64,000 nucleotides of DNA from Owenia fusiformis (taxonomy: Eukaryota > Annelida > Polychaeta > Sabellida > Oweniidae). The notes under the pieces were generated by a model. That model saw only the letters and a program-made list of their open reading frames with translations, was not told the origin of the DNA and searched no databases. The position numbers and the translations under genes were made by a program. Location of the stretch: positions 24,812,184 to 24,876,183 of the forward strand of contig CAIIXF020000012.1 of NCBI GenBank assembly GCA_903813345.2, read 5' to 3'. Each line of letters begins with the position of its first letter. Within the stretch, counting starts at the first letter, position 1. Positions 1-42,404 of this stretch are shown here, piece by piece.

Positions 1-346
1 GAACGCGAACATCATTCATTCAATCCATTCAAGAGCATACTCCAAAATATATACTTAAACGTCTCACAAAATTGCAAAGGACAGGCATGTACCAGTGTGA
101 CGTACGACTGGTCGGAAAATTGACATTTCGTCAAGAGTGCAAATTGCATAAGCGATTTAAGACGAATTAGATATAAAATATATCACGAACGGGAACATCA
201 TTCATTAAATCCATTCAAGAGCATACTCCAAAATATATACTTAAACGTCTCACAAAATTGCAAAGGACTGGCATGTACCAGTGTGACGTACGACTGGTCG
301 GAAAATTGACATTTCGTCAAGAGCGCAAATTGCATAAGCGATTTAA

Positions 347-532
347 GACGAATTAGATATAAAATATATCACGAACGGGAACATCATTCATTAAATCCAG
401 TCAAGAGCATACTCCAAATTATATACTTAAACGTCTCACAAAATTGAAAAGGACTGGCATGTACCAGTGTGACGTACGACTCTTGGGAAAATTGACATTT
501 CGTCAAGAGCGCAAATTGCATAAGCGATTTGA
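347..532 (+). repeat. Representative A monomer (186 bp)
   Basis: Starts GACGAATTAGATATAAAATA and ends before the next GACGAATT. The first half carries ATCACGAACGGGAACATC. The second half carries CGTCTCACAAAATTG, GTGACGTACGACT and a GCGATTTAAGACG junction. This last site contains the TTAA used by the insertions at 31720 and 33398. A is the only type whose copy number varies within the higher-order unit. Confidence 0.92.
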
Positions 533-726
533 GACGAATTGGATATTATATATCCCCCTAACAGAGAAGTCAATCGATACATCCCTCCTTTGGCAAACGT
601 AAAAATATATACATAAACGTCTCACAATATATCAAACTAGTCGCTGCTACCAGTGCGATGTACAGCTGGTCCGAAAATTGACATTACGTACACAGCCCAA
701 AGTAAATCAGACTTGTAGACAAATAA
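533..726 (+). repeat. Representative B monomer (about 194 bp)
   Basis: Starts GACGAATTGGATATTATATA and contains the C-run TCCCCCTAACAGAG, TCAATCGATACATCCCTCC and CAAACTAGTCGCTGC. Its second half aligns with the A monomer at CGTCTCACAA and GGTCCGAAAATTGACATT. It occurs once per higher-order unit, so it is the best marker for counting units. Confidence 0.92.
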
Positions 727-903
727 GATACTCAATATCTCATGAATAGTATGACCAATCGACAAGTCCTTGGTAGGGCAAATGTCAAAATGTATCCTGA
801 AACATCTCACTAAATAACAAATATCATGCTGTCACCAGCGTTACGTACGACTGGTCCGGAAATTCACATTTCCTCCAGAGCACAAACTGCATCATAGATT
901 TAA
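727..903 (+). repeat. Representative C monomer (about 177 bp)
   Basis: Starts GATACTCAATATCTCATGAA and contains GACCAATCGACAAGTCC, TGTCAAAATGTATCCTGAAA and CACCAGCGTTACGTACGACT. It always follows B and precedes A. B plus C together measure about 371-372 bp, two periods of the array. The LINE inserted in a C monomer at its GACCAAT. Confidence 0.92.
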
Positions 904-3900
904 GACGAATAAGATATAATATCACGAACGGGAACATCATTCATTAAATCCATTCAAGAGCATACTCCAAAATATATACTTAAACGCCTCACAAAATTGC
1001 AAAGGACTTGCATGTACCAGTGTGACGTACGACTGGTCGGAAAATTGACATTTCGTCAAGAGCGCAAATTGCATAAGCGATTTGAGACGAATTGGATATT
1101 ATATATCCCCCTAACAGAGAAGTCAATCGATACATCCCTCCTTTGGCAAACGTAAAAATATATACATAAACGTCTCACAATATATCAAACTAGTCGCTGC
1201 TACCAGTGCGATGTACAGCTGGTCCGAAAAATGACATTCCGTACATAGCCCAAAGTAAATCAGACTTGTATGACAAATTAGATACTCAATATCTCATGAA
1301 TAGTACGACCAATCGACAAGTCCTCAGTAGGGCAAATGTCAAAATGTATCCTGAAACATCTCACTAAATAACAAATATCATGCTGTCACCAGCGTTACGT
1401 ACGACTGGTCCGGAAATTGACATTTCCTCCAGAGCACAATTTGCATCATAGATTTAAGACGAATTAGATATAAAATATATCACGAACGGGAACATCATTC
1501 ATTAAATCCATTCAAGAGCATACTCCAAAATATATACTTAAACGTCTCACAAAATTGCAAAGGACTGGCATGTACCAGTGTGACGTACGACTGGTCGGAA
1601 AATTGACATTTCGTCAAGAGCGCAAATTGCATAAGCGATTTAAGACGAATTAGATATAAAATATATCACGAACGGGAACATCATTCATTAAATCCATTCA
1701 AGAGCATACTCCAAAATATATACTCAAACGTCTCACAAAATTGCAAAGGACTGGCATGTACCAGTGTGACGTACGACTGGTCGGAAAATTGACATTTCGT
1801 CCAGAGTGCAAATTGCATAAGCGATTTAAGACGAATTAGATATTAAATATATCACGAACGGGAACATCATTCATTAAATCCCTTCAAGAGCATACCCCAA
1901 AATATATACTTAAACGTCTAACAAAATTGCAAAGGACTGGCATGTACCAGTGTGACGTACGACTGGTCGGAAAATTGACATTTCGTCAAGAGCTCAAATT
2001 GCATAAGCGAGTTAAACGAATTGGATATAAAATATATCACGAACGGGAACATCATTCATTAAATCCATTCAAGAGCATACTCCAAAATATATATTTAAAC
2101 GTCTCACAAAATTGCAAAGGACTTGCATGTACCAGTGTGACGTACGATTGCATAAGCGATTTGAGACGAAATGGATATTATATATCCCCCTAACAGAGAA
2201 GTTAATCGATACATCCCTCCTTTGGCAAACGTAAAAATATATACATAAACGTCTCACAATATGTCAAACTAGTCGTTGCTATCAGTGCGATGTACAGCTG
2301 GTCCGAAAATTGACATTCCGTACATAGCCCAAAGTAAATCAGACTTGTATGACAAATTAGATGCTCAATATCTCATGAATCGTATGACCAATCGACAAGT
2401 CATCGGTAGGGCAAATGTCAAAATGTATCCTGAATCATCTCACTAAATAACAAATATCATGCTGTCACCAGCGTTACGTACGACTGGTCCTGAAATTGAC
2501 ATTTCCTCCAGAGCACAAACTGCATCATAGATTTAAGACGAATTAGATATAAAATATATCACGAACGGGAACATCATTCATTAAATCCATTCAAGAGTAT
2601 ACTCCAAAATATATACTTAAACGTCTCACAAAATTGCAAAGGACTGGCATGTACCAGTGTGACGTACGGCTGGTCGGAAAATTGACATTTCGTCAAGAGC
2701 GCAAATTGCATAAGCGATTTAACACGAATTAGATATAAAATATATCACGAACGGGAACATCATTCATTAAATCCATTCAAGAGCACACTCCAAAATATAT
2801 ACTTAAACGTCTCACAAAATTGCAAAGGACTGGCATGTACCAGTGTGACGTACGACTGGTCGGAAAATTGACATTTCGTCAAGAGCGCAAATTGCATAAG
2901 CGATTTAAGACGAATTAGATATAAAATATATCACGAACGGGAACATCATTCATTAAATCCATTCAAAAGCATACTCCAAAATATATACTTAAACGTCTCA
3001 CAAAATTGCAAAGGACTGGCATGTACCAGTGTGACGTACGACTGGTCGAAAAATTGACATTTCGTCAAGAGCGCAAATTGCATAAGCGATTTGAGACGAA
3101 TTGGATATTATATATCCCCCTAACAGAGAAGTCAATCGATACATCCCTCCTTTGGCAAACGTAAAAATATATACATAAACGTCTTACAATATATCAAACT
3201 AGTCGCTGCTACCAGTGCGATGTACAGCTGGTCCGAAAATTGACATTCTTTACATAGCCCAAAGTAAATCAGACTTATATGACAAATTAGATACTCAATA
3301 TCTCATGAATAGTATGACCAATCGACAAGTCCTCGGTAGGGCAAATGTCAAAATGTATCCTGAAACATCTCACTAAATAACAAATATCATGCTGTCACCA
3401 GCGTTACGTACGACTGGTCCGGAAATTGACATTTCCTCCAGAGCACAAACTGCATCATAGATTTAAGACGAATTAGATATAAAATATATCACGAACGGGA
3501 ACATCATTCATTAAATCCATTCAAGAGCATACTCCAAAATATATACTTAAACGTCTCACAAAATTGCAAAGGACTGGCATGTACCAAGGTGACGTACGGC
3601 TGGTCGGAAAATTGACATTTCGTCAAGAGCGCAAATTGCATAAGCGATTTAAGACGAATTAGATATAAAATATATCACGAACGGGAACATCATTCATTAA
3701 ATCCATTCAAAAGCATACTCCAAAATATATACTTAAACGTCTCACAAAATTGCAAAGGACTGGCATGTACCAGTGTGACGTACGACTGGTCGGAAAATTG
3801 ACATTTCGTCAAGAGCGCACATTGCATAAGCGAATTGAGACGAGTTGGATATTATATATCCCCCTAACAGAGAAGTCAATCGATACATCCCTCCTTTGGC

Positions 3901-14220: not shown

Positions 14221-14500
14221 TTATTCCATAGTTAGCATGATATTCATAGGATAACATGTGAAAATAAAAACGGTATTTTTGTAATCAATGGTAAAATATG
14301 ATATTTTTAACAAATTTTCACTTAACCATAACATACGGTTTTTTAGCCATGACATACGACGTCGTATGCGATGGTTTATGGATTTTTGCTACTTCAGACT
14401 CAAAACGAGGCTAAGTGTCAACATCGCCGGATCGTTTGGAAATTCGAATTAAATAACTTAATTTCCGACGATTCTGATGATGACTTTAACTATGGAATAA
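14221..14500. mobile_element. MITE-like element with 14-bp inverted termini
   Basis: A 280-bp non-satellite segment interrupting a B monomer. It begins TTATTCCATAGTTA and ends TAACTATGGAATAA, a perfect 14-bp terminal inverted repeat. Near its centre is the perfect 16-bp palindrome CATACGACGTCGTATG. No coding frame of note. The satellite resumes only after an adjacent foldback segment, so the two probably arrived as a composite or as nested insertions. Confidence 0.75.
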
Positions 14501-14508
14501 AAAGAACA

Positions 14509-14640
14509 TCCCATGATTTACTCGTGATATGATTTTAATCCACTCATGGATATTGATATCTACACTCTCTCACTACGCTCGCTCGTGCAGATATCATATC
14601 CATTCGTGGATAAAAATCATATCACTCATAAATCATAGGA
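14509..14640. mobile_element. Foldback element (about 56-bp arms)
   Basis: The left arm from 14509 (TCCCATGATTTACTCGTGAT) is matched in inverted orientation by the right arm ending at 14640 (ATCACTCATAAATCATAGGA), with a few mismatches. The spacer of about 20 bp reads TCTCTCACTACGCTCGCTC. It could form a long hairpin. It sits directly beside the 14221-14500 element inside a B monomer, whose sequence resumes at about 14647. Confidence 0.75.
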
Positions 14641-16823
14641 TATCCTCTATATACATAAACGTCTCACAATATATCAAACTAGTCGCTGCTACCAGTGCGA
14701 TGTACAGCTGGTCCGAAAATTGACATTCCGTGCATAGCCCAAAGTAAATCAGACTTACAAATTAGATACTCAATATCTCATGAATAGTATGACCAATCGA
14801 CAAGTTCTCGGTAGGGCAAATGTCAAAATGTATCCTGAAACATCTCACTAAATAACAAATATCATGCTGTCACCAGCATTACGTACGACTGGTCCGGAAA
14901 TTGACATTTCCTCCAGAGCACAAACTGCATCATAGATTTATGACGAATTAGATATAAAATATATCACGAACGGGAACATCATCCATTAAATCCATTCAAG
15001 AGCATACTCCAAAATATATACTTAAACGTCTCACAAAATTGCAAAGGACTTGCATGTAACAGTGTGACGTGCGACTGGTCGGAAAATTGACATTTCGTCA
15101 AGAGCGCAAATTGCATAAGCGATTTAGGACGAATTGGATATTTTATATCCCCCTAACAGAGAAGTCAATCGATACATCCCTCCTTTGGCAAACGTAAGAA
15201 TATATACATAAACGTCTCACAATATATCAAACTAGTCCCTGCTACCAGTGCGATGTACAGCTGGTCCAAAAATTGACATTCCGTACATAGCCCAAAGTAA
15301 ATCAGACTTGTATGACAAAGTAGATACTCAAAACCTCATGAATAGTCTGACCAATCAACACATCCTCGGTAGGGCAAATGTCAAAATGTATCAAACTAGT
15401 CACTGCTACCAGTGCGATGTACAGCTGGTCCGAAAATTGACATTCCGTACATAGCCCAAAGTAAATCAGACTTGTATGACAAATTAGATACTCAATATCT
15501 CATGAATAATATGACCAATCAACAAGTCCTCGATAGGGCAAATGTCAAAATGTATCCTGAAACATCTCACTAAATAACAAATATCATGCTGTCACCAGCG
15601 TTACGTACGACTGGTCCGAAAATTGACATTTCCTCCAGAGCACAAACTGCATCATAGATTTAAGACGAATTAGATATAAGATATAACACGAACGGGAACA
15701 TCATTCATTAAATCCATTCAAGAGCATACTACAAGATATATTCTTAAACGGTTCACAAAATTGCAAAGGACTGGCATGTACCAGTGTGACGTACGACTGG
15801 TCGTAAAATTGACATTTCGTCAAGAGTGCAAATTGCATAGCGATTTGAGACGAATTGGATATTATATATCCCCCTAACAGCGAAGTCAATCGATGCATCC
15901 CTCCTTTGGCAAACGTAAAAATATATACGTTAACGTCTCACAATATAGCAAACTAGTCGCTGCTACCAGTGCGATGTACAGCTGGTCCGAAAATTGACAT
16001 TCCGTACATAGCCCAAAGTAAATCAGACTTGTATGACAAAGTAGATACTCAAAACCTCATGAATAGTCTGACCAATCAACACATCCTCGGTAGGGCAAAT
16101 GTCAAAATGTATCCTGAAACATCTTACTAAATAACAAATATCATGCTGTCACCAGCGTTACGTACGACTGGTCCGAAAATTGACATTTCCTCCAGAGCAC
16201 AAACTGCATCATAGATTTAAGACGAATTAGATATAAAATATATCACGAACGGGAACATCATTCATTAAATCCATTCAAGAGCATACTCCAAAATATATAC
16301 TTAAACGTCTCACAAAATTGCAAAGGACTGGCATGTACCAGTGTGACGTACGACTGGTCGGGAAATTGACATTTCGTCAAGAGCGCAAATTGCATAAGCG
16401 ATTTAAGACGAATTGGATATTATATATCCCCCTAACAGAGAAGTCAATCGATACATCCCTCCTTTGGCAAACATAAAAATATATACATAAACGTCTCACA
16501 ATAAATCAAACTAGTCGCTGCTATCAGTGCGATGTACAGCTGGTCCGAAAATTAACATTCCGTACATGGCTTAAAGTAAATCAGACTTATATGGCAAATA
16601 AGATACTCAATATATCATGAATAGAATGACCAATCAACAAGTCCTCGGTAGGGAAAATTTAAAAATGTATCCTAAAACATCTCACTAAATAACAAATATC
16701 ATGCTGACACGAGCGTTACCAGTGCGATGTACAGCTGGTCCTAAAATTGACATTCCGTACATAGCCCAAAGTAAATCAGACTTGTATGACAAATTAGATA
16801 CTGAATATCTCATGAATAGTATG

Positions 16824-16829
16824 ACCAAT
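16824..16829. repeat. LINE target-site duplication, left copy
   Basis: ACCAAT at the end of the interrupted C monomer. The same hexamer occurs at 25499-25504, where the satellite resumes in phase. It is short, and one or two bases could be chance overlap with the LINE end. Confidence 0.6.
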
Positions 16830-17393
16830 ACAAAAAGTGTGTATACTCATGTATGCCGACGACATTGCTTTGATAGCTGAGACCCCTCAAGATCTTCAGC
16901 GCATGCTTAATGTTGTAAACCAGTGGTGTAGGAAATGGAGACTCAGCATAGGTCAGAAAAAATCGTTCACTACAGGCCAACCTCTAAACCAAGATCTACA
17001 TATCAATTTAAGTGTGGAATAAAATCAATAGAATATACTGAAAAATATAAATACTTGGGAGTATGGCTTGAAGAGCATGTCAACTCTCAAATAACAGCAA
17101 AGGAAATTGCTAAGTCTGCAAGTCGTGCTTTATGTGTAATAATGTCAAAATTCCAACAAACTGGAGGCATGGATATAACTGTTTACAGCAAATTATATGA
17201 CACTTTAGTGCAACCTGTGATCAACTATGGCTGTTCATTGATAGGTAATAATGAGCACAAGTGTATAAATGCAGTCCAGAATAAGGCATCAAAATTCTTT
17301 CTTGGTGTCGGTGTCAAAACAAACAACGAAGCAGCTCGAGCTGACCTTGGATGGGACTTACCACTTCACAAAAAACAGATAGAGAGTGCACGT
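16830..17393 (+). pseudogene. 5'-truncated LINE: reverse transcriptase C-terminal part
   Basis: Non-LTR retrotransposon fragment. The first codons give YADDIALIAE (YADD at 16852-16863), the catalytic motif of a LINE reverse transcriptase, so everything upstream of this motif is missing, as expected for a 5'-truncated insertion. The frame then breaks at an A6 run (16957-16962). It continues one base out of phase with IVHYRP, KYKYLGVWL and the thumb-like QPVINYGCSLIG and KFFLGVGVKTN segments. The frame runs into the Gypsy insertion at 17394 and resumes in phase at 24406. The style resembles the Jockey/I group, but the clade is not certain. The element entered a satellite C monomer. Confidence 0.85.
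17389..17393. repeat. Gypsy target-site duplication, left
   Basis: CACGT immediately left of the LTR start TGTTAC. It matches 24401-24405 and lies within the LINE coding frame (GCA CGT). Confidence 0.9.
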
Positions 17394-17587
17394 TGTTACA
17401 TATATTCGACAATCAAGCAAATACAGATTGGTGTTTTGCAAATATTTCACGTGCTTTTATTTCCTTACTGAGAACATAACATAGTCGATATAATATAAGA
17501 GTGATTTCGCTAAAGCGGTCTGGGGAAGCTATTACTGACAGATGGCGACATCTTTAAATGAATCATTAATTATTAACATACATGACA
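17394..17587 (-). repeat. Gypsy 3' LTR (194 bp)
   Basis: On the plus strand it reads TGTTACATATATTCG to ACATACATGACA, so it has the TG...CA ends of an LTR on both strands. It looks identical to 24207-24400. In element orientation this is the downstream LTR. Confidence 0.93.
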
Positions 17588-17601
17588 GTGCCCCTGTTTT
17601 T
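17588..17601 (-). promoter_or_regulatory. Probable Gypsy polypurine tract
   Basis: Minus-strand AAAAACAGGGGCAC lies directly upstream of the 3' LTR. It is mostly purine, as expected for plus-strand priming, but is broken by C bases. Confidence 0.45.
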
Positions 17602-17825
17602 CAGGATGACAAAATAAATGTTCATCAATGACATAGAGAAAAGTTTAACTTTAACTTTGTTCAATGTTATTCATAACTAGTTCAATAACAGCAATCAATG
17701 AAGTCCTCAAACTGATCTTTGCAGTAATTACAATCTAATGAAAGATTTTCAGTTCCTTCAACAAAGTAATATTATCTATAAAATACAGTACTTATATAAA
17801 GTAGTCAGTTATAATGTGATCAATG

Positions 17826-17958
17826 TTAAATGTTCTTCCAACCATATCTAACTGGTGGTTTTCTATCACGTCTGAGATTATATTTCCCGATAGGACTTGG
17901 GGATGAATTTTGCAATGATTTATCCACAGTAGAGCTATCAAGGGACATATCTGGCTTA
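17826..17958 (-). pseudogene. Gypsy pol C-terminal tail, beyond the nested insertion
   Basis: Across the nested element, the minus-strand frame resumes after the duplicated 9-mer and stays open to a TAA at 17826-17828. It ends in a basic, aromatic tail containing RRDRKPPVRYG. RKPPxRY is a common C-terminal motif of Ty3/Gypsy integrases, so this short piece is the detached end of the same protein. The frame match supports one clean insertion event. Confidence 0.82.
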
Positions 17959-17967
17959 GATTGAGAA
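17959..17967. repeat. 9-bp target duplication, left
   Basis: GATTGAGAA, also present at 20121-20129 on the other side of the nested element. Confidence 0.88.
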
Positions 17968-18042
17968 GGTTATAATGAAAACACGCGCTACGCGCTAACG
18001 CGCCACGCGCCAATGCGCTAATAGAAAATGATCCTTCCCCAC
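17968..18042 (+). repeat. Left terminal inverted repeat of the 2153-bp element
   Basis: GGTTATAATG followed by AAAACACGCGCTACGCGCTA, then further ACGCGCC words, and ATGATCCTTCCCCAC at the inner end. Pairs with 20046-20120. Confidence 0.82.
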
Positions 18043-19173
18043 GATGTGTGCGCATGTTTTAAGCGCATGTTTATGATTGGTCTATACCCTTGGCCCAGGG
18101 ACATGTATAATTAGGGTTATGACTCCCTGGGAACTTGTCAAAACATTGACACTTCAAAGACTGTATAAATCACCGCTAACCTGTCAATCAGACTTTGATG
18201 TGAACTTTGCGGCCGCAGGAAATAAACAAAGCCTCTCGAAAATTACACTTTTCAAGTTACGATTTCTCTAAAAATATAAGACCAATTAAGATGTTCTTCA
18301 CACCGTTAAAAAACAGAATTCAACTTCAATTTAGGAAATAATTCCAAAACTAAATGAACGTGTACTTTTCTCTGTATTTGACCTGAAAGAACATGAGTAA
18401 CTTAGAATTAATAAATATTTACGGCCAATTACCGGACAATGATAAAACACGCTGGTCGGGTTTACATTACTTTTTAAATCGTCTCTTATTTAAAACTTTA
18501 ATTCCAAATGAAATAGTATACAATCCTGTTTTCAACAATATTCCTGGTAAAATAGGTAATACAATTCACTGGGACTGATGTAATTCAAAACTTTTTAAAT
18601 CTAAAATCAAATTGAGAAAAACGAAAGCAAACATGAAAGGGGGGTTCATAGGGGTCTTGGAAATCCATATACACTATTTTTCACAAGCCCCTCAGTCTTA
18701 TACCATTTACAGCATTTTTCACCCCTTTTACATGTATAACATACAGTGTATGCAATATTTTTCACATCTCCCTATATAGACGGTGAACCAACAAGATCCT
18801 CAGAGACCCAGAGGGTGCATGAATGCACCTACTCCCCATAGTACTATATTTTACAAAAAGGTCGGGTAAATAATATATCTGTACTATAATTTTGAAATTA
18901 CCGTTGAGAAAAGTTTGGATAATATTCAGAAGGAAATAACATAATGCAAGAATCCACGTAGTACCAAATGTATAATCATACGGCAAATAGGCAGTACACA
19001 GCCCCGAAGCCAGGGGGGTTCGGAGGGTGACTTTAGAATTTTTGAAAAAGTGACCCCCCCCCTGGGAAATCCTGGTTACTGTCCTGTCATATGGCATATA
19101 GAGACTACTATATAGAGATCTGGATTACCCCCATAAATGTGGGACTGATTTTTCAAATCACCCCCATAACCAG

Positions 19174-19329
19174 GCCCGTAGCCAGAGGGGGAGCTGGGGG
19201 AGCGGAGCTCCCCCTCTGGCCAGAGATTCTTTCAAAATCATGCAGTTTTTCACCATTCTGAGAATTTTTTTCATGATTATTAGCCAAAATTGTGAAAAAG
19301 CTTCCCCTGGAAAAAAGCTGGCTACGGGC
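19174..19329. mobile_element. Small MITE-like unit with GCCCGTAGCCAG termini
   Basis: Begins GCCCGTAGCCAG and ends CTGGCTACGGGC, a perfect 12-bp inverted repeat 156 bp end to end. Just inside the left end, GAGGGGGAGCT and AGCTCCCCCTC form a second inverted pair. It may be a nested insertion or an internal part of the 2153-bp element. No target duplication is clear. Confidence 0.5.
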
Positions 19330-20045
19330 AAGCCCCCACAACTACTTGTGTATTGAAATCCCAAATTTATGGGGATAAGCTGGATCTGCAGTATTCGTTC
19401 AAACTGCCTTTAAATTTCATAATAGGTTTCTTTAATTCTTTTAAAACATATGTTTTTTTAACTTATACGATGCCATATACGATAAATGTTGCCCCCTCTT
19501 ATGCGGCCATACACAATAGATTTTCACCCTCCTCTTATACGATAACCCTATACACCCCCCCCCCCCCATGAAAGCGAAAGAGAGTAACCGGGCACGAAAA
19601 GAAAAATGGAAAAATATAAATGCGACGCCTGAATTATCCCACCGTTTGGTAAGTCATGTGAGATATAACTTCAAATACAAAGAGTAAAGATATATAGAAC
19701 ATCCATGACTTGATATTAAGAGGTAACATGCGACAAGTAAACATTATATTAAGTCATTAGTCAAGTAGTCGGGCCCCCGGCTCAGATTTCGAAACGGGAT
19801 TTTTCTCGCCGATGGATGGACCCAAATAATGCAATGAAATAGGGAGCATATTCGCATATCTGCGACCATTCATCTTGTAAGGTGCTACTTTCTATCTTCC
19901 TTTTAAATCAGATAAAACACACTGACAATCGATAATCTTTGCACAGTTAACGTCACGATCAAACATTGGGCTTCTTCATACTTCTGCTTTCTGATGAGCC
20001 ACCTAATCTCTTCACTCACTCGATTTTTATACATGTTCCCGGGCC

Positions 20046-20120
20046 TGTGGGAACGATCATTCTGAACAGTGCGTTAGTGCGCTAGCGCGTCAGCGCGTAG
20101 CGCGTGTTTTCATTATAACC
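20046..20120 (-). repeat. Right terminal inverted repeat of the 2153-bp element
   Basis: Read on the minus strand it begins GGTTATAATGAAAACACGCG and ends near ATGATCGTTCCCAC, mirroring 17968-18042. Confidence 0.82.
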
Positions 20121-20129
20121 GATTGAGAA
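20121..20129. repeat. 9-bp target duplication, right
   Basis: GATTGAGAA, matching 17959-17967. It lies inside Gypsy pol coding sequence. Confidence 0.88.
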
Positions 20130-23800: not shown

Positions 23801-24126
23801 TTATAGAATTTGAAACGTTCCGCTATAATAAGAGGTTTCGGAGAGTAATGTTTAATCAGTGTGTCTTTTATCTGTTCATATGACAGTTCATGTGGACGCC
23901 TTGGTGTTGATAAATCCCTTAGGGTTTTGTACATTTTTGCACCAATCAATGTCAATGTTAATGGCACAATTTTATCGTCTGTTGGTCTTAAATTTACTGC
24001 CTCGAAATATTGATCTAGTCTTTCGAAGTATATATCCACACTCTCAACAGAGTCATCAAAATGTTGGAACTTTAAGTTCAAATTAAAGTCACGAACTGGA
24101 TCTGTCTGTTCTTCACCGTCAGCCAT
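20800..24126 (-). pseudogene. Gypsy gag-pol polyprotein, main frame (1108 codons)
   Basis: Starts at ATG 24126 (MADGEEQTDP). Gag-like region at residues about 1-200. Two CCHC zinc knuckles at 214-247 (CYRC...HNSDEC, CHRC...HIKKAC). A basic/serine-rich linker follows. Aspartic protease with DTGS at 325-328 and LLGRDWL at 393-399. Reverse transcriptase at about 470-640 with LDLGNAF near 546 and YLDD at 607-610. RNase H with DTDAS at 754-758 and TDHKPL near 822. Integrase zinc module H-H-C-C (H977/H980, C1010/C1013) and the first two catalytic acids (D1041 in HVDYAG, D1095 in SDNGPQF). The frame ends abnormally just after SDNGPQFV, because one base appears to be missing near 20825-20827. The rest of integrase is in the next frame. 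All earlier motifs look intact, so the element decayed recently. Confidence 0.93.
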
Positions 24127-24192
24127 GGTACTTACTGGGTGTTATACAGTCCAAAATATAGTGAATATCGATATTGACATGAAGGTTACTTT

Positions 24193-24205
24193 ATCCTCGT
24201 CGCCA
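24193..24205 (-). promoter_or_regulatory. Gypsy primer-binding site
   Basis: On the minus strand TGGCGACGAGGAT begins one base inside the 5' LTR. The TGG start complements the CCA end of a tRNA, as expected for minus-strand priming. The tRNA identity (a serine-type 3' end is possible) is not settled. Confidence 0.65.
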
Positions 24206-24206
24206 G

Positions 24207-24400
24207 TGTTACATATATTCGACAATCAAGCAAATACAGATTGGTGTTTTGCAAATATTTCACGTGCTTTTATTTCCTTACTGAGAACATAACATAGTCG
24301 ATATAATATAAGAGTGATTTCGCTAAAGCGGTCTGGGGAAGCTATTACTGACAGATGGCGACATCTTTAAATGAATCATTAATTATTAACATACATGACA
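24207..24400 (-). repeat. Gypsy 5' LTR (194 bp)
   Basis: Direct repeat of 17394-17587 with the same length and TG...CA ends. In element orientation it precedes gag by about 80 bp. Promoter and poly(A) signals would lie here, but I cannot point to specific ones. Confidence 0.93.
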
Positions 24401-24405
24401 CACGT
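24401..24405. repeat. Gypsy target-site duplication, right
   Basis: CACGT immediately after the LTR end ATGACA, matching 17389-17393. Confidence 0.9.
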
Positions 24406-25498
24406 CTTTTTATACGCCTGCAAAATTTGGACAAAGATAGGTTAAACTCAAAAATACATCATTGGTCCTTAAGACGTAAAAATAGTTGGGACTACAGAGT
24501 CTACAAGTTCTTAGAGGCATCAGGCCAAGGGAATATAACTCAAATGGAAAACTTAAATGCTAAAGCTATTTTAGAAGAGGTCAAGCTTTATCAACAATCT
24601 CAAGATCCCTTTTTAAAAAACATTTGGAATGACAAAAACAATGAAGTGAACGGTAATAAATTAAGAACTTTCAGGCAATTTAAGTATGGAGTAGTAGCCG
24701 AAAGTTATGTAACTTGTTTCATCCCAAGACACCATCGAAGTGCATTGGCTAAACTGAGAACTGGGACGCTACAACTCCGTATAGAAACTGGTAGATATGA
24801 TGGTACTCCTCTGGACCAGAGAACTTGCAAACTCTGTGATTTGGATGAAGTTGAAAATGAAATTCATTTTCTGATAAAATGTCCACACTATAAGCTCCTA
24901 AGGGATACCTTCTATAGAGAGATTGTGCAAGAGCAATTGCCATATATAGACTTGAATAATGCAAATTCACTTTTGACATTTATTAGCCTAATGCTTGCCA
25001 AGAAGATTCAAAAACCTCTAGCAGCTCTTATTCATAATATGTATTCAAAAAGGCAATTTGACTATGGCAGATTATAGGAGTTACATTTGTGAAGTCCAGA
25101 CTTGGTTAAAATTGATACTTTTTAGAATTAAAGATATAACTGGGCAGCAGGTGTGTGTCCCCAATCTGTTATAGTCATTTTCCAGCACTTGACTACAAAA
25201 TTTATTGTATCAATACAGTTTATTTATGCATGCATATTCATTTATTGTGATAATAGCCATTAATAGAAAATATTTGTCAAAGCATTTAAAGATGGCAGCA
25301 CCTGAATACTACTCTATCTAAGAGTGCTCTATTAAGTCAACTTACTCTAGTCAATATTCAATTACAATTAGATATACATTTAATGGTGTCTCCTAAGCCG
25401 ATGCCGGCTGGTGGGTTTTTAAAAAAAAGTATTTATTATATGATATTGAATGTAGTTTTTAAACCTGTGACACAGAAATAAAATATTTTAAACTTAAA
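24406..25498 (+). pseudogene. LINE ORF C-terminus and 3' UTR
   Basis: Continuation of the LINE coding frame after the Gypsy element. It runs open from 24406 to a stop at 25075-25077. It encodes a basic region, then a cysteine/histidine cluster CKLCDLDEVENEIHFLIKCP, a pattern often seen at the C-terminus of animal LINE polymerases. About 420 bp of AT-rich 3' UTR follows, ending AAATATTTTAAACTTAA with no long poly(A). The satellite C monomer resumes at ACCAAT (25499). An upstream in-frame ATG at 24355 lies in the LTR and is not the LINE's own start. Confidence 0.85.
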
Positions 25499-25504
25499 AC
25501 CAAT
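25499..25504. repeat. LINE target-site duplication, right copy
   Basis: ACCAAT matching 16824-16829. Downstream sequence CGACAAGTCCTCGGTAGGG is the normal continuation of a C monomer, so removing the insert restores the satellite. Confidence 0.6.
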
Positions 25505-31500: not shown

Positions 31501-31719
31501 TCCTCCAGAGCACAAACTGCATCATAGATTTAAGACGAATTAGATATAAAATATATCACGAACGGGAACATCATTCATTAAATCCATTCAAGAGCATACT
31601 CCAAAATATATACTTAAACGTCTCACAAAATTGCAAAGGACTGGCATGTACCAGTGTGACGTACGACTGGTCGGAAAATTGACATTTCGTCAAGAGCGCA
31701 GATTGCATAAGCGATTTAA

Positions 31720-32278
31720 AGGGTTCCGATTAGCATCCCGTACAAAAACAATATGGCGGCTCTAGGCGAATCAACTGGATCAGTCCATTTTTAAGAAATA
31801 AGGGGAGTTCTGTAAAATCCAGTTTATTGAAATTGTCTTTGAGATAAAGTAATCCGTTTATAATGATTTTGAAAACGTTATCCAAAGAGTGATTGCGTTC
31901 AAAGAATACATGTACAACAGCCAATATAAATCCTTGTATTAGAACTGCTTTGTTTCATTTGTAGGATTTTCATATGCCAAGCTGTGTGCTATTACGTTAT
32001 GGGGAAATTTAGATGCCAATTTTTATTATTATACACAAATAGAAGATCCTGAAATTTCACCCATAAATGTGGAATTGATTTGTCAAAATAAAAGTCACCC
32101 TTTTATAAATGTGTGACGATCTATAATATACTTATGCTATATAACAGTTAGAGGTGTTGACACAACGACCTCGAACCTGTGAACCCTTGAGTATTATTCC
32201 GGGATCGGGCCTTTTATACTAAACGGTGAGCAACACCAGAAACGAGCGTTCGATTTGCTAAACGATATGCGTCACCCT
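31720..32278. mobile_element. TTAA-flanked insertion 1 (559 bp)
   Basis: Non-satellite DNA inserted in an A monomer at GAT-TTAA-GACG. TTAA lies on both sides (31716-31719, 32279-32282) and the satellite is restored when the insert is removed. The ends AGGGT...ACCCT form a 5-bp inverted repeat. TTAA duplication is typical of piggyBac- and Kolobok-type elements, so this is probably a non-autonomous member. It contains a tRNA-like segment (32153-32237) and a stretch near 32056 resembling one in the 2153-bp element near 19127. No credible protein frame. Confidence 0.78.
32153..32237 (-). other. tRNA-like segment with Pol III box A/B matches
   Basis: On the minus strand an 85-nt stretch begins GGTGTTG and ends CAACACC, a perfect 7-bp acceptor-like pair. 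TAGTATAAAAG matches the box A pattern and GGTTCGAGGTC matches box B with one mismatch, at plausible spacing. The D and T arms do not fold well, so this is more likely a decayed tRNA-derived sequence than a working tRNA gene. Because the outer heptamers pair, the stem exists on both strands. Confidence 0.33.
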
Positions 32279-33397
32279 TTAAGACGAATTAGATATAAAA
32301 TATATCACGAACGGGAACATCATTCATTAAATCCATTCAAGAGCATACTCTAAAATATATACTTAAACGTCTCACAAAATTACAAAGGACTGGCATGTAC
32401 CAGTGTGACGCACGACTGGTCGGAAAATTGACATTTCGTCAAGAGTGCAAATTGCATAAGCGATTTGAGACGAATTGGATATTATATATCCCCCTAACAA
32501 AGAAGTCAATCGATACATCCCTCCTTTGGCAAACGTAAAAATATATACATAAACGTCTCACAATATATCAAACTAGTCGCTGCTACCAGTGCGATGTACA
32601 GCTGGTCCGAAAATTGACATTCCGTACATAGCCCAAAGTAAATCAGACTTGTATGACAAATTAGATACTTAATATCTCATGAATAGTATGACCAATCGAC
32701 AAGTCCTCGGTAGGCCAAATGTCAAAATGTATCCTGAAACATCTCACTAAATAACAAATATCATGCTGTCACCAGCGTTACGTACGACTGGTCCGGAAAT
32801 TGACATTTCCTCCAGAGCACAAACTGCATAATAGATTTAAGACGAATTAGATATAAAATGTATCACGAACGGGAACATCATTCATTAAATCCATTCAAGA
32901 GCATACTCCAAAATATATACTTAAACGTCTCAAAAAATTGCAAAGGACTGTCATGTACCAGTGTGACGTACGACTGGTCGGAAAATTGACATTTCGTCAA
33001 GAGCGCAAATTGCATAAGCGATTAAGACGAATTAGATATAAAATATATCACGAACGGGAACATCATTCATTAAATCCATTCAAGAGCATACTCCAAAATA
33101 TTTACTTAAACGTCTCACAAAATTGCAAATGACTGGCATGTACCAGTGTGACGTACGACTGGTCGGAAAATTGACATTTCGTCAAGAGCGCAAATTGCAT
33201 AAGCGATTTAAGACGAGTTAGATATAAAATATATCACGAACGGGAACATCACTCATTAAATCCATTCAAGAGCATACTCCAAAATATATACTTAAACGTC
33301 TCACAAAATTGCAAAGGACTGGCATATACCAGTGTGACGTACGACTGGTCGGAAAATTGACATTTCGTCAAGAGCGCAAATTGCATAAGCGATTTAA

Positions 33398-33898
33398 AGT
33401 CCCCGATAAATCGGGCTACGTATACCGCCGTGTTTACATTAGGGGATTAGAAGAGTTTATTTTTTATTTAGGTATGCACGCTACGTATATCAATATTAGG
33501 CCTTCATTCATGTACTCGTGTGCATGTAATCAGCATGCCCTTCAATATTATGTAAACCAGGCTATTCAAGTACTGTATAATGTACACTATTTATGTGTGT
33601 GCTACATACAATACAATTCCCTGGGAAACAAAACACAAATACTTTTTATATGTTCAAAATGAGCCATTTGATTGATGCAAACACTAAATAGCTTCATAAA
33701 TAACATCTACAAAGTATATCTAATAGTAATTTTCAATTTCAATGGTGAAACTTCCCTGGTTACGATTATATGGGAAATCATCACGAGACGAAGATCGTTC
33801 GCCTTCCTGGCTTACCTCTGAATCGTGTACCTGGTAATCTCTTTATATAGTTTAGCGAGAGCGGTGCGCCTGCGCAGTTTTAAACTTTGGCGCACACT
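33398..33898. mobile_element. TTAA-flanked insertion 2 (501 bp)
   Basis: Non-satellite DNA between TTAA (33394-33397) and TTAA (33899-33902), at the same GAT-TTAA-GACG position of an A monomer as the 31720 insertion, but unrelated in sequence. It starts AGTCCCCGATAAATCGGG and ends GGCGCACACT; only AGT/ACT is clearly inverted at the tips. A chance ORF reads from satellite into it and has no recognisable domain. Confidence 0.75.
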
Positions 33899-34542
33899 TT
33901 AAGACGAATTAGATATAAAATATATCACGAACAGGAACATCATTCATTAAATTCATTCAAGAGCATACTCCAAAATATATACTTAAACGTCTTACAAAAT
34001 TGCAAAGGACTGGCATGTACCAGTGTGACGTACGACTGGTCGGAAAATTGACATTTCGTCAAGAGCGCAAATTGCATAAGCGATTTGAGACGAAATGGAT
34101 ATTATATATCCCCCTAACAGAGAAGTCAGTCGATACACCCCTCCTTTGGCAAACGTAAAAATATATACATAAACGTCTCACAATATATCAAACTAGTCGC
34201 TGCTACCAGTGCGATGTACAGCTTGTCCGAAAATTGACATTCCATACATAGCCCAAAGTAAATCAGACTTGTATGACAAATTAGATACTCAATATCTCAT
34301 GAATAGTATGACCAATCGACAAGTTCTCGGTAGGGCAAATGTCAAAATGTATCCTGAAACATCTCACTAAATAACAAATATCATGCTGTCACCAGCGTTA
34401 CGTACGACTGGTCCGGAAATTGACATTTCCTCCAGAGCACAAACTGCATCATAGATGTAAGACGAATTAGATATAAAATATATCACGAACGGGAACATCA
34501 TTCATTAAATCCATTCAAGAGCATACTCCAAAATATATACTT

Positions 34543-35983
34543 AAACGTCTCACAAAATTGCAAAGGACTGGCATGTACCAATGTGACGTACGACTGGTCG
34601 GAAAATTGACATTTTGTCAAGAGCGCAAATTGCATAAGCGATTTAAGAAAAATTAGATATAAAATATATTACGAACGGGAACATCATTCATTAAATCCAT
34701 TGAAGAGCATACTCCAAAATATATACTTAAACGTCTCACAAAATTGCAAAGGACTGGCATGTACGAGTGTGACTACGACTGGTCGGAAAATTGACATATT
34801 TCGTCAAGAGGGCAAATTGCATAAGCGATTTGAGACGAATTGGATATTATATATCCCCCTAAAAGAGAAGTCAATCGATACATCCCTCCTTTGGCAAACG
34901 TAAAAATATATACATAAACGTCTCACAATATATCAAACTAGTCGATGGTACCAGTGCGATGTACAGCTGGTCCGAAAATTGACATTCCGTACATAGCCCA
35001 AAGTAAATCAGACTTGTATGACAAATTAGATACTCAATATATCATGAATAGTATGACCAATCAACAATTCCTCGGTAAGGCAAATGTCAAAATGTATCCT
35101 GAAACATCTCACTAAAATTGACATTTCGTCAAGAGCGCAAATTGCATAAGCAATTAAGACGAATTAGATATAAAATATATCACGAACGGGAACATCATTC
35201 ATTAAATCCATTCAAGAGCATACTCCAAAATATTTACTTAAACGTCTCACAAAATTGCAAATGACTGGCATGTACCAGTGTGACGTACGACTGGTCGGAA
35301 AATTGACATTTCGTCAAGAGCGCAAATTGCATAAGCGATTTAAGACGAGTTAGATATAAAATATATCACGAACGGGAACATCACTCATTAAATCCATTCA
35401 AGAGCATACTCCAAAATATATACTTAAACGTCTCACAAAATTGCAAAGGACTGGCATGTACCAGTGTGACGTACGACTGGTCGGAAAATTGACATTTCGT
35501 CAAGAGCGCAAATTGCATAAGCGATTTAAGACGAATTGGATATAAAATATATCACCAACAGGAACATCATTCATTAAATTCATTCAAGAGCATACTCCAA
35601 AATATATACTTAAACGTCTCACAAAATTGCAAAGGACTGGCATGTACCAGTGTGACGCACGAATGGTCGGAAAATTGACATTTCGTCAAGAGCACAAATT
35701 GCATCATAGATTTAAGACGAATTAGATATAAAATATATCACGAACGGGAACATCATTCATTAAATCCATTCAAGAGCATACTCCAAAATATATACTTAAA
35801 CGTCTCACAAAATTGCAAAGGACTGGCATGTACCAGTGTGACGTACGACTGGTCGGAAAATTGACATTTCGTCAAGAGCGCAAATTGCATAAGCGATTTG
35901 AGACGAATTGGATATTATATATTCCCCTAACAAAGAAGTCAATTGATACATCCCTCCTTTGGCAAACGTAAAAATATATACAT
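34543..35983 (+). repeat. 1441-bp tandem duplication, copy 1
   Basis: Satellite segment almost identical to 35984-37424; the second copy abuts the first exactly. It includes private variants such as TACGAGTGTGACTACGACTG and GTCGATGGTACC. Only a couple of differences are visible (for example ACTCCAAAA versus ACTATAAAA near 37222). Confidence 0.85.
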
Positions 35984-37424
35984 AAACGTCTCACAAAATT
36001 GCAAAGGACTGGCATGTACCAATGTGACGTACGACTGGTCGGAAAATTGACATTTTGTCAAGAGCGCAAATTGCATAAGCGATTTAAGAAAAATTAGATA
36101 TAAAATATATTACGAACGGGAACATCATTCATTAAATCCATTGAAGAGCATACTCCAAAATATATACTTAAACGTCTCACAAAATTGCAAAGGACTGGCA
36201 TGTACGAGTGTGACTACGACTGGTCGGAAAATTGACATATTTCGTCAAGAGGGCAAATTGCATAAGCGATTTGAGACGAATTGGATATTATATATCCCCC
36301 TAAAAGAGAAGTCAATCGATACATCCCTCCTTTGGCAAACGTAAAAATATATACATAAACGTCTCACAATATATCAAACTAGTCGATGGTACCAGTGCAA
36401 TGTACAGCTGGTCCGAAAATTGACATTCCGTACATAGCCCAAAGTAAATCAGACTTGTATGACAAATTAGATACTCAATATATCATGAATAGTATGACCA
36501 ATCAACAATTCCTCGGTAAGGCAAATGTCAAAATGTATCCTGAAACATCTCACTAAAATTGACATTTCGTCAAGAGCGCAAATTGCATAAGCAATTAAGA
36601 CGAATTAGATATAAAATATATCACGAACGGGAACATCATTCATTAAATCCATTCAAGAGCATACTCCAAAATATTTACTTAAACGTCTCACAAAATTGCA
36701 AATGACTGGCATGTACCAGTGTGACGTACGACTGGTCGGAAAATTGACATTTCGTCAAGAGCGCAAATTGCATAAGCGATTTAAGACGAGTTAGATATAA
36801 AATATATCACGAACGGGAACATCACTCATTAAATCCATTCAAGAGCATACTCCAAAATATATACTTAAACGTCTCACAAAATTGCAAAGGACTGGCATGT
36901 ACCAGTGTGACGTACGACTGGTCGGAAAATTGACATTTCGTCAAGAGCGCAAATTGCATAAGCGATTTAAGACGAATTGGATATAAAATATATCACCAAC
37001 AGGAACATCATTCATTAAATTCATTCAAGAGCATACTCCAAAATATATACTTAAACGTCTCACAAAATTGCAAAGGACTGGCATGTACCAGTGTGACGCA
37101 CGAATGGTCGGAAAATTGACATTTCGTCAAGAGCACAAATTGCATCATAGATTTAAGACGAATTAGATATAAAATATATCACGAACGGGAACATCATTCA
37201 TTAAATCCATTCAAGAGCATACTATAAAATATATACTTAAACGTCTCACAAAATTGCAAAGGACTGGCATGTACCAGTGTGACGTACGACTGGTCGGAAA
37301 ATTGACATTTCGTCAAGAGCGCAAATTGCATAAGCGATTTGAGACGAATTGGATATTATATATTCCCCTAACAAAGAAGTCAATTGATACATCCCTCCTT
37401 TGGCAAACGTAAAAATATATACAT
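35984..37424 (+). repeat. 1441-bp tandem duplication, copy 2
   Basis: Second copy at constant offset 1441. The junction at 35984 joins the first half of a B monomer to the second half of an A monomer through the shared AAACGTCTCACAA, in register. This is what an unequal crossover between misaligned units would leave. Confidence 0.85.
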
Positions 37425-40400
37425 AAACGTCTCACAATATATCAAACTAGTCGCTGCTACCAGTGCGATGTACAGCTGGTCCGAAAATTGACATTCCGTA
37501 CATAGCCCAAAGTAAATCAGACTTGTATGACAAATTAGATACTTAATATCTCATGAATAGTATGACCAATCGACAAGTCCTCGGTAGGCCAAATGTCAAA
37601 ATGTATCCTGAAACATTTCACTAAATAACAAATATCATGCTGTCACCAGCGTTACGTGCAACTGGTCCGGAAATTGACATTTCCTCCAGAGCACAAACTG
37701 CATAATAGATTTAAGACGAATTAGATATAAAATATATCACGAACGGGAACATCATTCATTAAATCCATTCAAGAGCATACTCCAAAATATATACTTAAAC
37801 GTCTCAAAAAATTACAAAGGACTGGCATGTACCAGTGTGACGTACGACTGGTCGGAAAATTGACATTGCGTCAAGAGCGCAAATTGCATAAGCGATTAAG
37901 ACGAATTAGATATAAAATATATCACGAACGGGAACATCATTCATTAAATCCATTCAAGAGCATACTTAAAAATATTTACTTAAACGTCTCACAAAATTGC
38001 AAATGACTGGCATGTACCAGTGTGACGTACGGCTGGTCGGAAAATTGACATTTCGTCAAGAGCGCAAATTGCATAAGCGATTTAAGACGAGTTAGATATA
38101 AAATATATCACGAACGGGAACATTACTCATTAAATCCATTCAAGAGCATACTCCAAATATATATACTTAAACGTCTCACAAAATTGCAAAGGACTGGCAT
38201 GTACCAGTGTGACGTACGACTTGTCGGAAAATTGACATTTCGTCAAGAGCGCAAATTGCATAAGCGATTTAAGACGAATTAGATATAAAATATATCACGA
38301 ACAGGAACATCATTCATTAAATTCATTCAAGAGCATACTCCAAAATATATACTTAAACGTCTCACAAAATTGCAAAGGACTGGCATGTACCAGTGTGACG
38401 TACGACTGGTCGGAAAATTGACATTTCGTCAAGAGCGCAAATTGCATAAGCGATTTGAGACGAAATGGATATTATATATCCCCCTAAAAGAGAAGTCAAT
38501 CGATACACCCCTCCTTTGGCAAACGTAAAAATATATACATAAACGTCTCACAATATATCAAACTAGTCGCTGCTACCAGTGCGATGTACAGCTTGTCCGA
38601 AAATTGACATTTCATACATAGCCCAAAGTAAATCAGACTTGTATGACAAATTAGATACTCAATATCTCATGAATAGTATGACCAATCGACAAGTTCTCGG
38701 TAGGGCAAATGTCAAAATGTAACCTGAAACATCTCACTAAATAACAAATATCATGCTGTCACCAGCATTACGTACGACTGGTCTGGAAATTGACATTTCC
38801 TCCAGAGCACAAACTGCATCATAGATTTAAGACGAATTAGATATAAAATATATCACGAACGGGAACATCATTCATTAAATCAATTCAAGAGCATACTCCA
38901 AAATATATACTTAAACGTCTCACAAAATTGCAAAGGACTGGCATGTACCAGTGTGACGTACGACTGGTCGGAAAATTGACATTTCGTCAAGAGCGCAAAT
39001 TGCATAAGCGATTTGAGACGAATTGGATATTATATATCCCCCTAACAGAGAAGTCAATCGATACATCCCTCCTTTGGCAAACGTAAAAATATATACATAA
39101 ACGTCTCACAACATATCAAACTAGTCGCTGATACCAGTGCGATGTACAGCTGGTACGAAAATTGACATTCCGTACATAGCCCGAAGTAAATCAGACTTGT
39201 ATGACAAATTAGATACTCAATATCTCATGAATAGTATAACCTATCGACAATTCCTGGGTAGGGCAAATGTCAAAATGTATCCTGAAACATATCACTAAAT
39301 AACAAATATCATGCTGTCACCAGCGTTACGTACGACTGGTCCGGAAATTGACATTTCCTCCAGAGCACAAACTGCATCATAGATTTAAGACGAATTAGAT
39401 ATAAAATATATCACGAACGGGAACATCATTCATTAAATCCATTCAAGAGCATACTCCAAAATATATACTTAAACGTCTCACAAAATTGCAAAGGACTGGC
39501 ATGCACCAGTGTGACGTACGACTGGTCGGAAAATTGACATTTCGTCAAGAGCGCAAATTGCATAAGCGATTTAAGACGAATTAGATGTAAAATATATCAC
39601 GAACGGGAACATCATTCATTAAATCCATTCAAGAGCATACTCCAAAATATATACTTAAACGTCTCACAAAATTGCAAAGGACTGGCATGTACCAGTGTGA
39701 CGTACGACTGGTCGGAACATTGACATTTCGTCAAGAGCGCAAACTGCATAAACGATTTGAGACGAATTGGATATTATATATCCCCCTAACAGGGAAGTCA
39801 ATCGATACATCCCTCCTTTGGCAAACGTAAAAATATATACATAAACCTCTCACAATATATCAAACTAGTCGCTGCTACCAGTGCGATGTACAGCTGGTCC
39901 GAAAATTGACATTCCGTACATAGCCCAAAGTAAATCAGACTTGTATGACAAATTAGATGCTCAATATCTCATGAATCGTATGACCAATCGACAAGTCCTC
40001 GGTAGGGCAAATGTCAAAATGTATCCTGAAACATCTCACTAAATAACAAATATCATGCTGTCACCAGCGTTACGTACGACTGGTCCGGAAATTGACATTT
40101 CCTCCAGAGCACAGACTGCATCATATATTTAAGACGAATTAGATATAAAATATATCACGAACGGGAACATCATTCATTAAATCCATTCAAGAGCATACTC
40201 CAAAATTTATACTTAAACGTCTCACAAAATTGCAAAGGACTGGCATGTACCAGTGTGACGTACGACTGGTCGGAAAATTGACATTTCGTCAAGAGCGCAA
40301 ATTGCATAAGCGATTTAAGACGAATTAGATATAAAATATATCACGAACGGGAACATCATTCATTAAATCCATTCAAGAGCATACTCCAAAATATATACTT

Positions 40401-42404
40401 AAACGTCTCATAAAATTGCAAAGGACTTGCATGTTCCAGTGTGACGTACGACTGGTCGGAAAATTGACATTTCGTCAAGAGCGCAAATTGTATAAGCGAT
40501 TTGAGACGAATTGGATATTATATATCCACCTAAAAGAGAAGTCAATCGATACATCCCTCCTTTTGCAAACGTAAAAATATATACATAAACGTCTCACAAT
40601 ATATCAAACTAGTCGCTGCTACCAGTGCGATGTACAGCTGGTCCGAAAATTGACATTCCGTACATAGCCCAAAGTAAATCAGACTTGTATGACAAATTAG
40701 ATGCTCAATATCTCATGAATCGTATGACCAATCGACAAGTCCTCGGTAGGGCAAATGTCAAAATGTATCCTGAAACATCTCACTAAATAACAAATATCAT
40801 GCTGTCACCAGCGTTACGTACGACTGGTCCTGAAATTGACATTTCCTCCAGAGCACAAACTGCATCATAGATTTAAGATGAATTAGATATAAAATATATC
40901 ACGAACGGGAACATCATTCATTAAATCCATTCAAGAGCATACTCCAAAATATATACTTAAACGTCTCACAAAATTGCAAAGGACTGGCACGTACCAGTGT
41001 GACGTACGACTGGTCGGAAAATTGACATTTCGTCAAGAGCGCAAATTGCATAAGCGATTTAAGACGAATTAGATATAAAATATATCACGGACAGGAACAT
41101 CATTCATTAAATACATTCAAGAGCATACTCCAAAATATATACTTAAACGTCTCACAAAATTGCAAAGGACTGGCATGTACCAGTGTGACGTACGACTGGT
41201 CGGAAAATTGACATTTCGTCAAGAGCGCAAATTGCATAAGCGATTTGAGACGAATTGGATATTATATATCCCCCTAACAGAGAAGTCAATCGATACATCC
41301 CTCCTTTGGCAAACGTAAAAATATATACATAAACGTCTCACAATATATCAAACTAGTCGCTGCTACCAGTGCGATGTACAGCTGGTCCGAAAATTGACAT
41401 TCCGTACATAGCCCAAACTAAATCAGACTTGTATGACAAATTAGATACTCAATATCTCATGAATAGTATGACCAATCGACAAGTTCTCGGTAGGGCAAAT
41501 GTCAAAATGTATCCTGAAACATCTCACTAAATAACAAATATCATGCTGTCACCAGCGTTACGTACGACTGGTCCGGAAATTGACATTTCCTCCAGACCAC
41601 AAACTGCATCATAGATGTAAGACGAATTAGATATAAAATATATCACGAACGGGAACATCATTCATTAAATCCATTCAAGAGCATACTCCAAATATATACT
41701 TAAACGTCTCACAAAATTGCAAAGGACTGGCATGTACCAGTGTGACGTACGACTGGTCGGAAAATTGACATTTCGTCAAGAGCGCAAATTGCATAAGCGA
41801 TTTAAGACGAATTAGATATAAAATATATCACGACCGGGAACATCATTCATTAAATCCATTCAAGAGCATACTCCAAAATATATACTTAAACGTCTCACAA
41901 AATTGCAAAGGACTGGCATGTACCAGTGTGACGTACGACTGGTCGGAAAATTGACAGTTCGTCAAGAGCGCAAATTGCATAAGCGATTTAAGACGAATTA
42001 AATATAAAATATATCACGAACGGGAACATCATTCATTAAATCCATTCAAGAGCATACTCCAAAATATATACTTAAACGTCTCACAAAATTGCAAATGACT
42101 GGCATGTACCAGTGTGTTGTACGAATGGTCCGGAAATTGACATTTCCTCCAGAGCACAAACTGAATCATATATTTAAGACGAATTAGATATAAAATATAT
42201 CACGAACGGCAACATCATTCATTAAATCCATTCAAGAGCATACTCCAAAATATATACTAAACGTCTCACAAAATTGCAAAGGACTGGCATGTACCAGGGT
42301 GACGTACGACTGGTCGGAAAATTGACATTTCGTCAAGAGCGCAAATTGCATAAGCGATTTGAGACGAATTGGATATTATATATCCCCCTAACAGAGAAGT
42401 CAAG

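What the first reader, a model, noticed from the sequence alone, without database searches (positions are those of the whole stretch)
1..42404. Trimeric higher-order satellite with quantised A-monomer copy number
Seen: A(n)BC units where B and C are single and only A varies from 1 to 4. B-to-B spacing falls on 558, 744, 930 or 1116 bp, all multiples of 186, and the rule holds on both sides of every inserted transposon. Known: higher-order repeats of this kind mark homogenised centromeric arrays in several animals and plants. Inference: this may be a centromeric or pericentromeric satellite of this species, with A-number changed by local crossover.
Basis: partly seen in the sequence, partly recalled or inferred. 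Interest (0 to 1): 0.75.

Follow-up and report, generated by a model that had tools for sequence, protein, structure and literature searches.

The report
Edge of a three-type satellite array
This is a long stretch of repeated DNA built from three related 186-base units in the order A (one to four times), B, C, lying next to an older, decayed version of the same repeat in the opposite direction; it resembles the layered repeats around primate centromeres, but whether it sits at a centromere is untested.

Summary
The repeat is real. Positions 1-42403 are a + strand array of 186-bp monomers in three types: 92 full A, 36 full B, 36 full C; 96-97% identical within types, 68-72% between consensus sequences. 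Units are A(1-4)-B-C: 39 of 39 internal A-runs hold 1-4 full A. The spacing rule is looser than claimed: 19 of 38 B-to-B spacings are exact multiples of 186, 24 of 38 within 4 bp, 27 of 38 after subtracting three insertions. 'Local crossover' is only partly supported: neighbouring copies are no more alike than distant ones, and shared rare variants concentrate at 4-6 kb offsets (13 of 30 pairs, 0.54 expected). Best reading: a cascading-type higher-order repeat at the edge of a satellite domain, A changing by similarity-limited unequal exchange, larger blocks by 4-6 kb exchange. A (peri)centromeric place is plausible but untested, as no genome is held. New member of a known kind.

The parts
1..42403 (+). 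A(n)BC higher-order satellite array, 186-bp monomers of three types, n of full A = 1-4; open at the left end of the window
42404..47952 (-). older, inverted array of the same family; monomer types a, b (A-like), c1-c4 (C-like) and an A-A pair, in a still readable order
47201..47572 (-). tandem pair of A-type monomers in the flank, 95% identical to each other, 83-84% to array A: the closest relatives of array A found
34542..37437 (+). 1441-bp tandem duplication (exact matches of 416, 824 and 212 bp at that offset)
35900..36085 (+). B/A chimeric monomer: joint between unlike monomers, no C follows
16591..16778 (+). C/B chimeric monomer, followed by a further C
32467..34272 (+). block whose sister lies at 37341-38642 (offset 4874 before and 4370 after the 505-bp insert); n=4 in both; sister lacks the insert
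919..1839 (+). block 98.3% identical to 5818-6738; both are followed by the same 36-bp deletion, the first with one A more
14224..14647 (.). 424-bp insertion in B
16830..25498 (.). 8669-bp nested insertion in C (C positions 39-44 repeated at both ends); holds + strand ORFs and a Ty3/gypsy element on -
31718..32280 (.). 563-bp insertion at a TTAA of A
33396..33900 (.). 505-bp insertion at the same TTAA position of A
53817..54599 (-). three relic fragments of the same family (53817-53938, 54450-54550, 54553-54599)

Best explanation
A non-coding satellite array of the cascading higher-order type (one monomer type repeated within the unit) at the edge of a satellite domain. How it changes: unequal exchange needs similar partners. 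A copies are about 97% alike while A, B and C are only 68-72% alike, so exchange falls between A and A; it changes n by whole monomers, always leaves at least one A and leaves the B-C pair intact. On a larger scale blocks are copied by exchange at 4-6 kb offsets. Rare joints between unlike monomers gave the chimeras and truncations. The inverted stretch 42404-47952 is an older ordered array of the same family that stopped being homogenised and decayed; A(n)BC is a younger expansion of that family. Shown: types, order, run lengths, inverted flank with its own order, 4-6 kb excess. Inferred: exchange as the mechanism, the age order, and a likely place in (peri)centromeric heterochromatin, which alone I put at about 0.4.
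For: Three types; n of 1-4 in 39 of 39 runs, never 0; chimeric and truncated monomers; sister blocks, one pair with equal n, one differing by one A beside a shared private deletion; rare-variant sharing above permutation (A: 24 pairs share two or more, 3.2 expected) and concentrated at 4-6 kb (13 of 30, 0.54 expected); flank of the same family, more diverged, with ordered types. A plant study reports that DNA circles form from satellites at sizes set by the more similar repeat level (PMC2543021, passages read), which supports the similarity limit by analogy.
Against: No rise of identity with proximity and no likeness of n among the most similar B-C pairs, so A-number change is not caught in the act apart from one or two cases. 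The 13 pairs at 4-6 kb are not independent: they fall on about six offsets, five of them from one block pair. The smallest-offset bin (under 600 bp) has 1 of 30 pairs with 0.09 expected from few possible pairs, so short-range exchange is not excluded. The flank's closest relatives of array A lie at its far end, not next to the array. No evidence bears on location. The age order assumes equal mutation rates.
Confidence: 0.55

Rival explanations
1. The same satellite, but in interstitial, subtelomeric or sex-chromosome heterochromatin without a centromeric role. It grows and decays by the same exchange process.
For: Four sizeable insertions and 3-4% difference between copies; no CENP-B box better than shuffles; the oyster satellite Cg170 shows that a centromere-associated satellite can also be widely interspersed (PMC7348941, passages read).
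Against: The ordered, inverted older layer beside a younger one matches the picture described around human centromeres (PMC2729386, passages read). This is analogy only.
Confidence: 0.4
2. One amplification from a founder mixture of A1BC to A4BC units, after which copies only mutated. A-number differences are inherited, not produced by exchange in place.
For: No dependence of identity on distance; no variant above 7 of 92 copies in A and many singletons; indels within full monomers private apart from the 1441-bp duplication.
Against: Rare variants are shared more than permutation allows, at preferred 4-6 kb offsets; a shared 36-bp deletion with different n; the recent 1441-bp duplication.
Confidence: 0.25
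3. Part of the picture is an assembly artefact: the orientation switch at 42404 or the 1441-bp duplication may be a wrong join or a doubled stretch.
For: Orientation flips exactly where divergence changes; the duplication holds exact matches of 824 and 416 bp; the record contains a 500-N gap at 62001-62500.
Against: No N run of 10 or more lies in 1-62000; most array copies differ by several bases and can be told apart.
Confidence: 0.1

Closest known systems
Cascading alpha-satellite higher-order repeats of primates (PMC11050224, abstract and passages read)
   Same: Units of monomers 20-40% different, copies under about 5% different, one monomer type occurring more than once within a unit.
   Different: Sequence unrelated by any test made here; monomer 186 not 171 bp; only three types; the repeated type stands in a simple run whose length varies between units.
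Layers of older alpha satellite beside active human centromeres (PMC2729386, passages read)
   Same: A more homogeneous array beside a more diverged one of the same family.
   Different: Here only one side is seen and its function is unknown; the older layer is inverted and still ordered; the younger array carries four insertions, whereas that paper says new human arrays hold no significant number of L1 repeats.
Cg170 satellite of the Pacific oyster (PMC7348941, passages read)
   Same: Animal satellite with a monomer of similar length.
   Different: Cg170 is described as central repeats of Helitrons and highly interspersed; here an array of at least 42 kb with ordered types. Sequences were not compared, and the host of this window is not known.

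Membership tests
Higher-order-repeat satellite | Several monomer types, well separated from each other, each homogeneous | tested here: met
   96-97% within, 68-72% between consensus sequences
Higher-order-repeat satellite | Types recur in a fixed order in tandem | tested here: met
   A(1-4)-B-C throughout 1-42403 with the listed exceptions
Cascading higher-order repeat | A monomer type repeated within the canonical unit | tested here: met
   n of 2 or more in 30 of 39 runs; commonest unit AABC
Centromeric satellite | Location at primary constrictions, association with CenH3 | not testable with these tools
   no genome held; needs FISH or ChIP
Centromeric satellite | High abundance in the genome | not testable with these tools
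   no genome or reads held
CENP-B-box satellite (motif recalled) | Match to NTTCGNNNNANNCGGGN | tested here: not met
   best 6, 7 and 6 of 9 fixed positions in A, B, C; p 0.87, 0.24, 0.91 against shuffles
Layered pericentromere | Older, more diverged array of the same family beside a younger one | tested here: met
   42404-47952; one side only
Layered pericentromere | Matching layer on the other side of the younger array | not testable with these tools
   the array runs off the left end of the window
Helitron-borne satellite | Tandem repeats as the central part of a Helitron, dispersed | not tested
   Helitron ends were not searched; dispersal needs the genome

The most novel reading that the evidence does not exclude
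A genome outside primates that keeps a primate-like record of satellite succession: a decayed, inverted array with its own ordered types (b-c2-c4-a-c1 seen twice in a row, with c3 before b in two places, perhaps a doubled A-like/C-like/C-like trimer) beside a younger A(n)BC array grown from the same family together with a B type not found in the flank. A-number is held at 1-4 by the rules of exchange between similar monomers, and all types share one conserved block that may bind a protein.
Probability: 0.3. Interest if true: 0.6.

Novelty: new member of a known kind. Interest (0 to 1): 0.35.

Why it matters
If the region is (peri)centromeric, it is a compact case of a young higher-order array beside its older layer, outside the primates in which such layers were described. 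It also makes a simple model testable: exchange limited to the most similar monomers changes only A, keeps at least one A and leaves B-C untouched, while longer exchange moves 4-6 kb blocks. Otherwise it is ordinary satellite biology.

Tried and rejected
Sequence search elsewhere: exact scans with a 31-base pattern in viral contigs and a 27-base pattern in genome contigs found nothing; uninformative for a eukaryotic satellite.

Host: not identified. From recall only, the ORFs look like those of marine invertebrates, perhaps a bivalve; no call supports this.

Papers: searches for a 186-bp satellite or a molluscan higher-order repeat listed none recognisable as this one. One paper with a 186-bp higher-order repeat concerns a 38-bp Vicia satellite (PMC2543021, passages), a different thing. 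PMC12818792 (golden mussel) has no '186', 'higher-order' or 'HOR' in its main text. Supplements were not searched; PMC12008808 and PMC7735760 (listed) were not opened.

CENP-B box and dyad symmetry: no better than shuffles (dyad p 0.70-0.78). CpG decay: CpG transitions 1.6-1.9 times other C/G transitions, too weak to argue from. Positions within A-runs (first, middle, last, only): no diagnostic columns. Period in the series of n: none (smallest p 0.083). Rfam: no match in the window. A pure star-like burst was my first reading; weakened it.

Rows dropped: a loose anchor kept only 3 flank monomers and was replaced by a strict one that kept 26 of 30; the four dropped pieces are 298, 233, 113 and 109 bp. 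Monomers of the 1441-bp duplication were left out (A 82 of 92, B 33 of 36, C 34 of 35 used; positions 34500-37300). One search left out full-length monomers under 90% identity (35 of 36 C used). The tree used 12 array monomers, four per type, drawn at random from those over 97% identity.

My notebook (entry 2) calls the flank a hexamer; on recount no complete hexamer is present, and the report says so.

Full report
What is there. Tandem Repeats Finder reports period 186 over most of 1-42383. An anchor pattern finds 171 starts on + between 93 and 42295 and 22 on - between 42553 and 47816. Clustering 157 anchor-phased full monomers gives three groups of 88, 36 and 33 at cut-offs 0.20 to 0.10, and two groups at 0.25 to 0.35. 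In that phase some monomers are half one type and half the next; the switch lies at (A/G)AGACGAATT. Cut there, the array has 92 full A, 36 full B, 36 full C and 16 partial pieces. Consensus identities are A-B 71%, A-C 72%, B-C 68%; mean identity within types is 96.7, 96.8 and 96.1%.

The rule A(n)BC. Of 40 A-runs 39 are internal; they hold 1, 2, 3 or 4 full A in 9, 17, 5 and 8 cases. No run of 0 or of more than 4 full A was seen; two runs of 4 are preceded by a 42-bp A piece fused to a truncated C, and one run of 1 follows the B/A chimera. With truncated A counted as whole the mean is 2.36; a Poisson law would give neither 0 nor 5 and more with probability 0.0003, a zero-truncated geometric law no 5 and more with probability 0.011; the order of n shows no period. 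B-to-B spacing: 19 of 38 exact multiples of 186 and 24 of 38 within 4 bp, 27 of 38 after subtracting three insertions. The other 11 come from two 36-bp deletions (near 2146 and 6868), 8-bp additions (near 6730 and 11905), small indels, and partial or chimeric monomers at 4405, 15381, 16591, 29739, 35018, 35900 and 36459.

Exchange. If an A of one run crosses over with an A of another, the product keeps at least one A and whole B-C pairs, so n=0 cannot arise that way. This is reasoning; it agrees with 39 of 39 runs. Against frequent short-range exchange: identity does not depend on distance in A, B or C (Mantel p 0.68, 0.46, 0.39), and the 20 most similar B-C pairs do not have more similar n (mean difference upstream 1.6 against 1.22 overall, downstream 1.0 against 1.14). 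For longer exchange: copies share rare variants more than permutation allows (pairs sharing two or more: A 24 against 3.2, B 5 against 2.5 with p 0.09, C 24 against 7.5). With insertions subtracted, 13 of 30 such pairs lie 4-6 kb apart (0.54 expected, 0 of 500 permutations as high); 3 of 30 at 600-2000 bp (0.47 expected), 1 of 30 under 600 bp (0.09 expected), 4 of 30 at 12-20 kb (1.4 expected). The 13 are not independent: they fall on about six offsets (4025, 4369-4370, 4722, 5140, 5466, 5735). Sister blocks: 32467-34272 with 37341-38642, n=4 in both and the second without the 505-bp insert (99% identity over the 300 bp to the right of the insert); 919-1839 with 5818-6738, 98.3% identical, followed in both by the same 36-bp deletion, with one A more in the first (the next 905 bp are 97.5%, little above the array mean). 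Of five B-C pairs that share three or more rare variants, upstream n agrees in 2 and downstream n in 2 (28% expected). A 1441-bp tandem duplication at 34542-37437 is nearly exact.

The flank. From 42404 the family continues on the - strand to 47952. A tree of 26 of 30 flank monomers and 12 array monomers (12 of 35 inner branches well supported, 13 unresolved) groups array A with the flank pair at 47201-47572 (99/98), separates flank types a (99/97), b (97/91), c1 (93/97) and c2 (97/96), and puts array C with c3 and c4 (100/99); array B stands alone, and no flank monomer is over 68% identical to its consensus. On the - strand the order is c2 c4 A A a c1, gap, b c2 c4 a c1 b c2 c4 a c1 c3 b c4 a c1, gap, c2 c3 b c2 c4. 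The five-type order b-c2-c4-a-c1 is complete twice in a row; c3 stands before b in 2 of 2. Over all steps 18 of 23 follow the commonest successor; shuffles average 10.3 and 0 of 5000 reach 18. So the flank is a decayed ordered array. Its monomers match their nearest flank partner at 79-95%, against a mean of 96-97% between any two array copies. Relics follow at 53817-54599. Within the + array there is no gradient towards the edge: 98.4, 98.5, 98.4, 96.9, 98.2, 98.3, 97.9 and 98.3% identity to consensus in the eight occupied 5-kb bins.

A conserved block. Over the three consensus sequences and 26 flank monomers the most conserved 20 positions are 136-155 (CTGGTCGGAAAATTGACATT in A): 92.8% against a mean of 79.4%; p 0.0002 with columns permuted, 0.005 with blocks of five permuted. 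A protein-binding site is possible; it is not a CENP-B box.

Insertions. Four interrupt the + array: 424 bp in B, 8669 bp in C, 563 and 505 bp at the same TTAA of A. The largest holds + strand ORFs without Pfam match (from recall, non-LTR-like), split by a Ty3/gypsy element on - with identical 194-bp LTRs and a CACGT target duplication.

Reading. It works like a cascading higher-order repeat (PMC11050224, passages read) beside an older layer as described around human centromeres (PMC2729386, passages read). Membership as a centromeric satellite is untested. I rate the structure as near certain, the exchange mechanism as more likely than not, and a (peri)centromeric place at about 0.4.

Noticed in passing
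17394-24400: Ty3/gypsy element on the - strand with identical 194-bp LTRs (17394-17587, 24207-24400) and a CACGT target duplication, so probably a recent insertion; its coding region lies in two frames (20800-24141 and 20090-20839).
   Followed up: partly
31718-32280 and 33396-33900: Two unrelated-looking inserts at the same TTAA position of an A monomer; a sister block of the second (near 38270) is uninterrupted.
   Followed up: partly
48746-49690: Another tandem repeat, period 112 bp, 8.4 copies, just beyond the flank.
   Followed up: no
57991-58674: Nested tandem repeats with periods of about 50, 156 and 206 bp.
   Followed up: no
61871-62000: 19-bp minisatellite running into a 500-N gap at 62001-62500.
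   Followed up: no
48069-48497 (-): 143-aa open frame just beyond the flank; only sub-threshold Pfam matches.
   Followed up: partly
A consensus positions 136-155, in every monomer type: Twenty-base block conserved across array and flank types more than permutation gives.
   Followed up: partly
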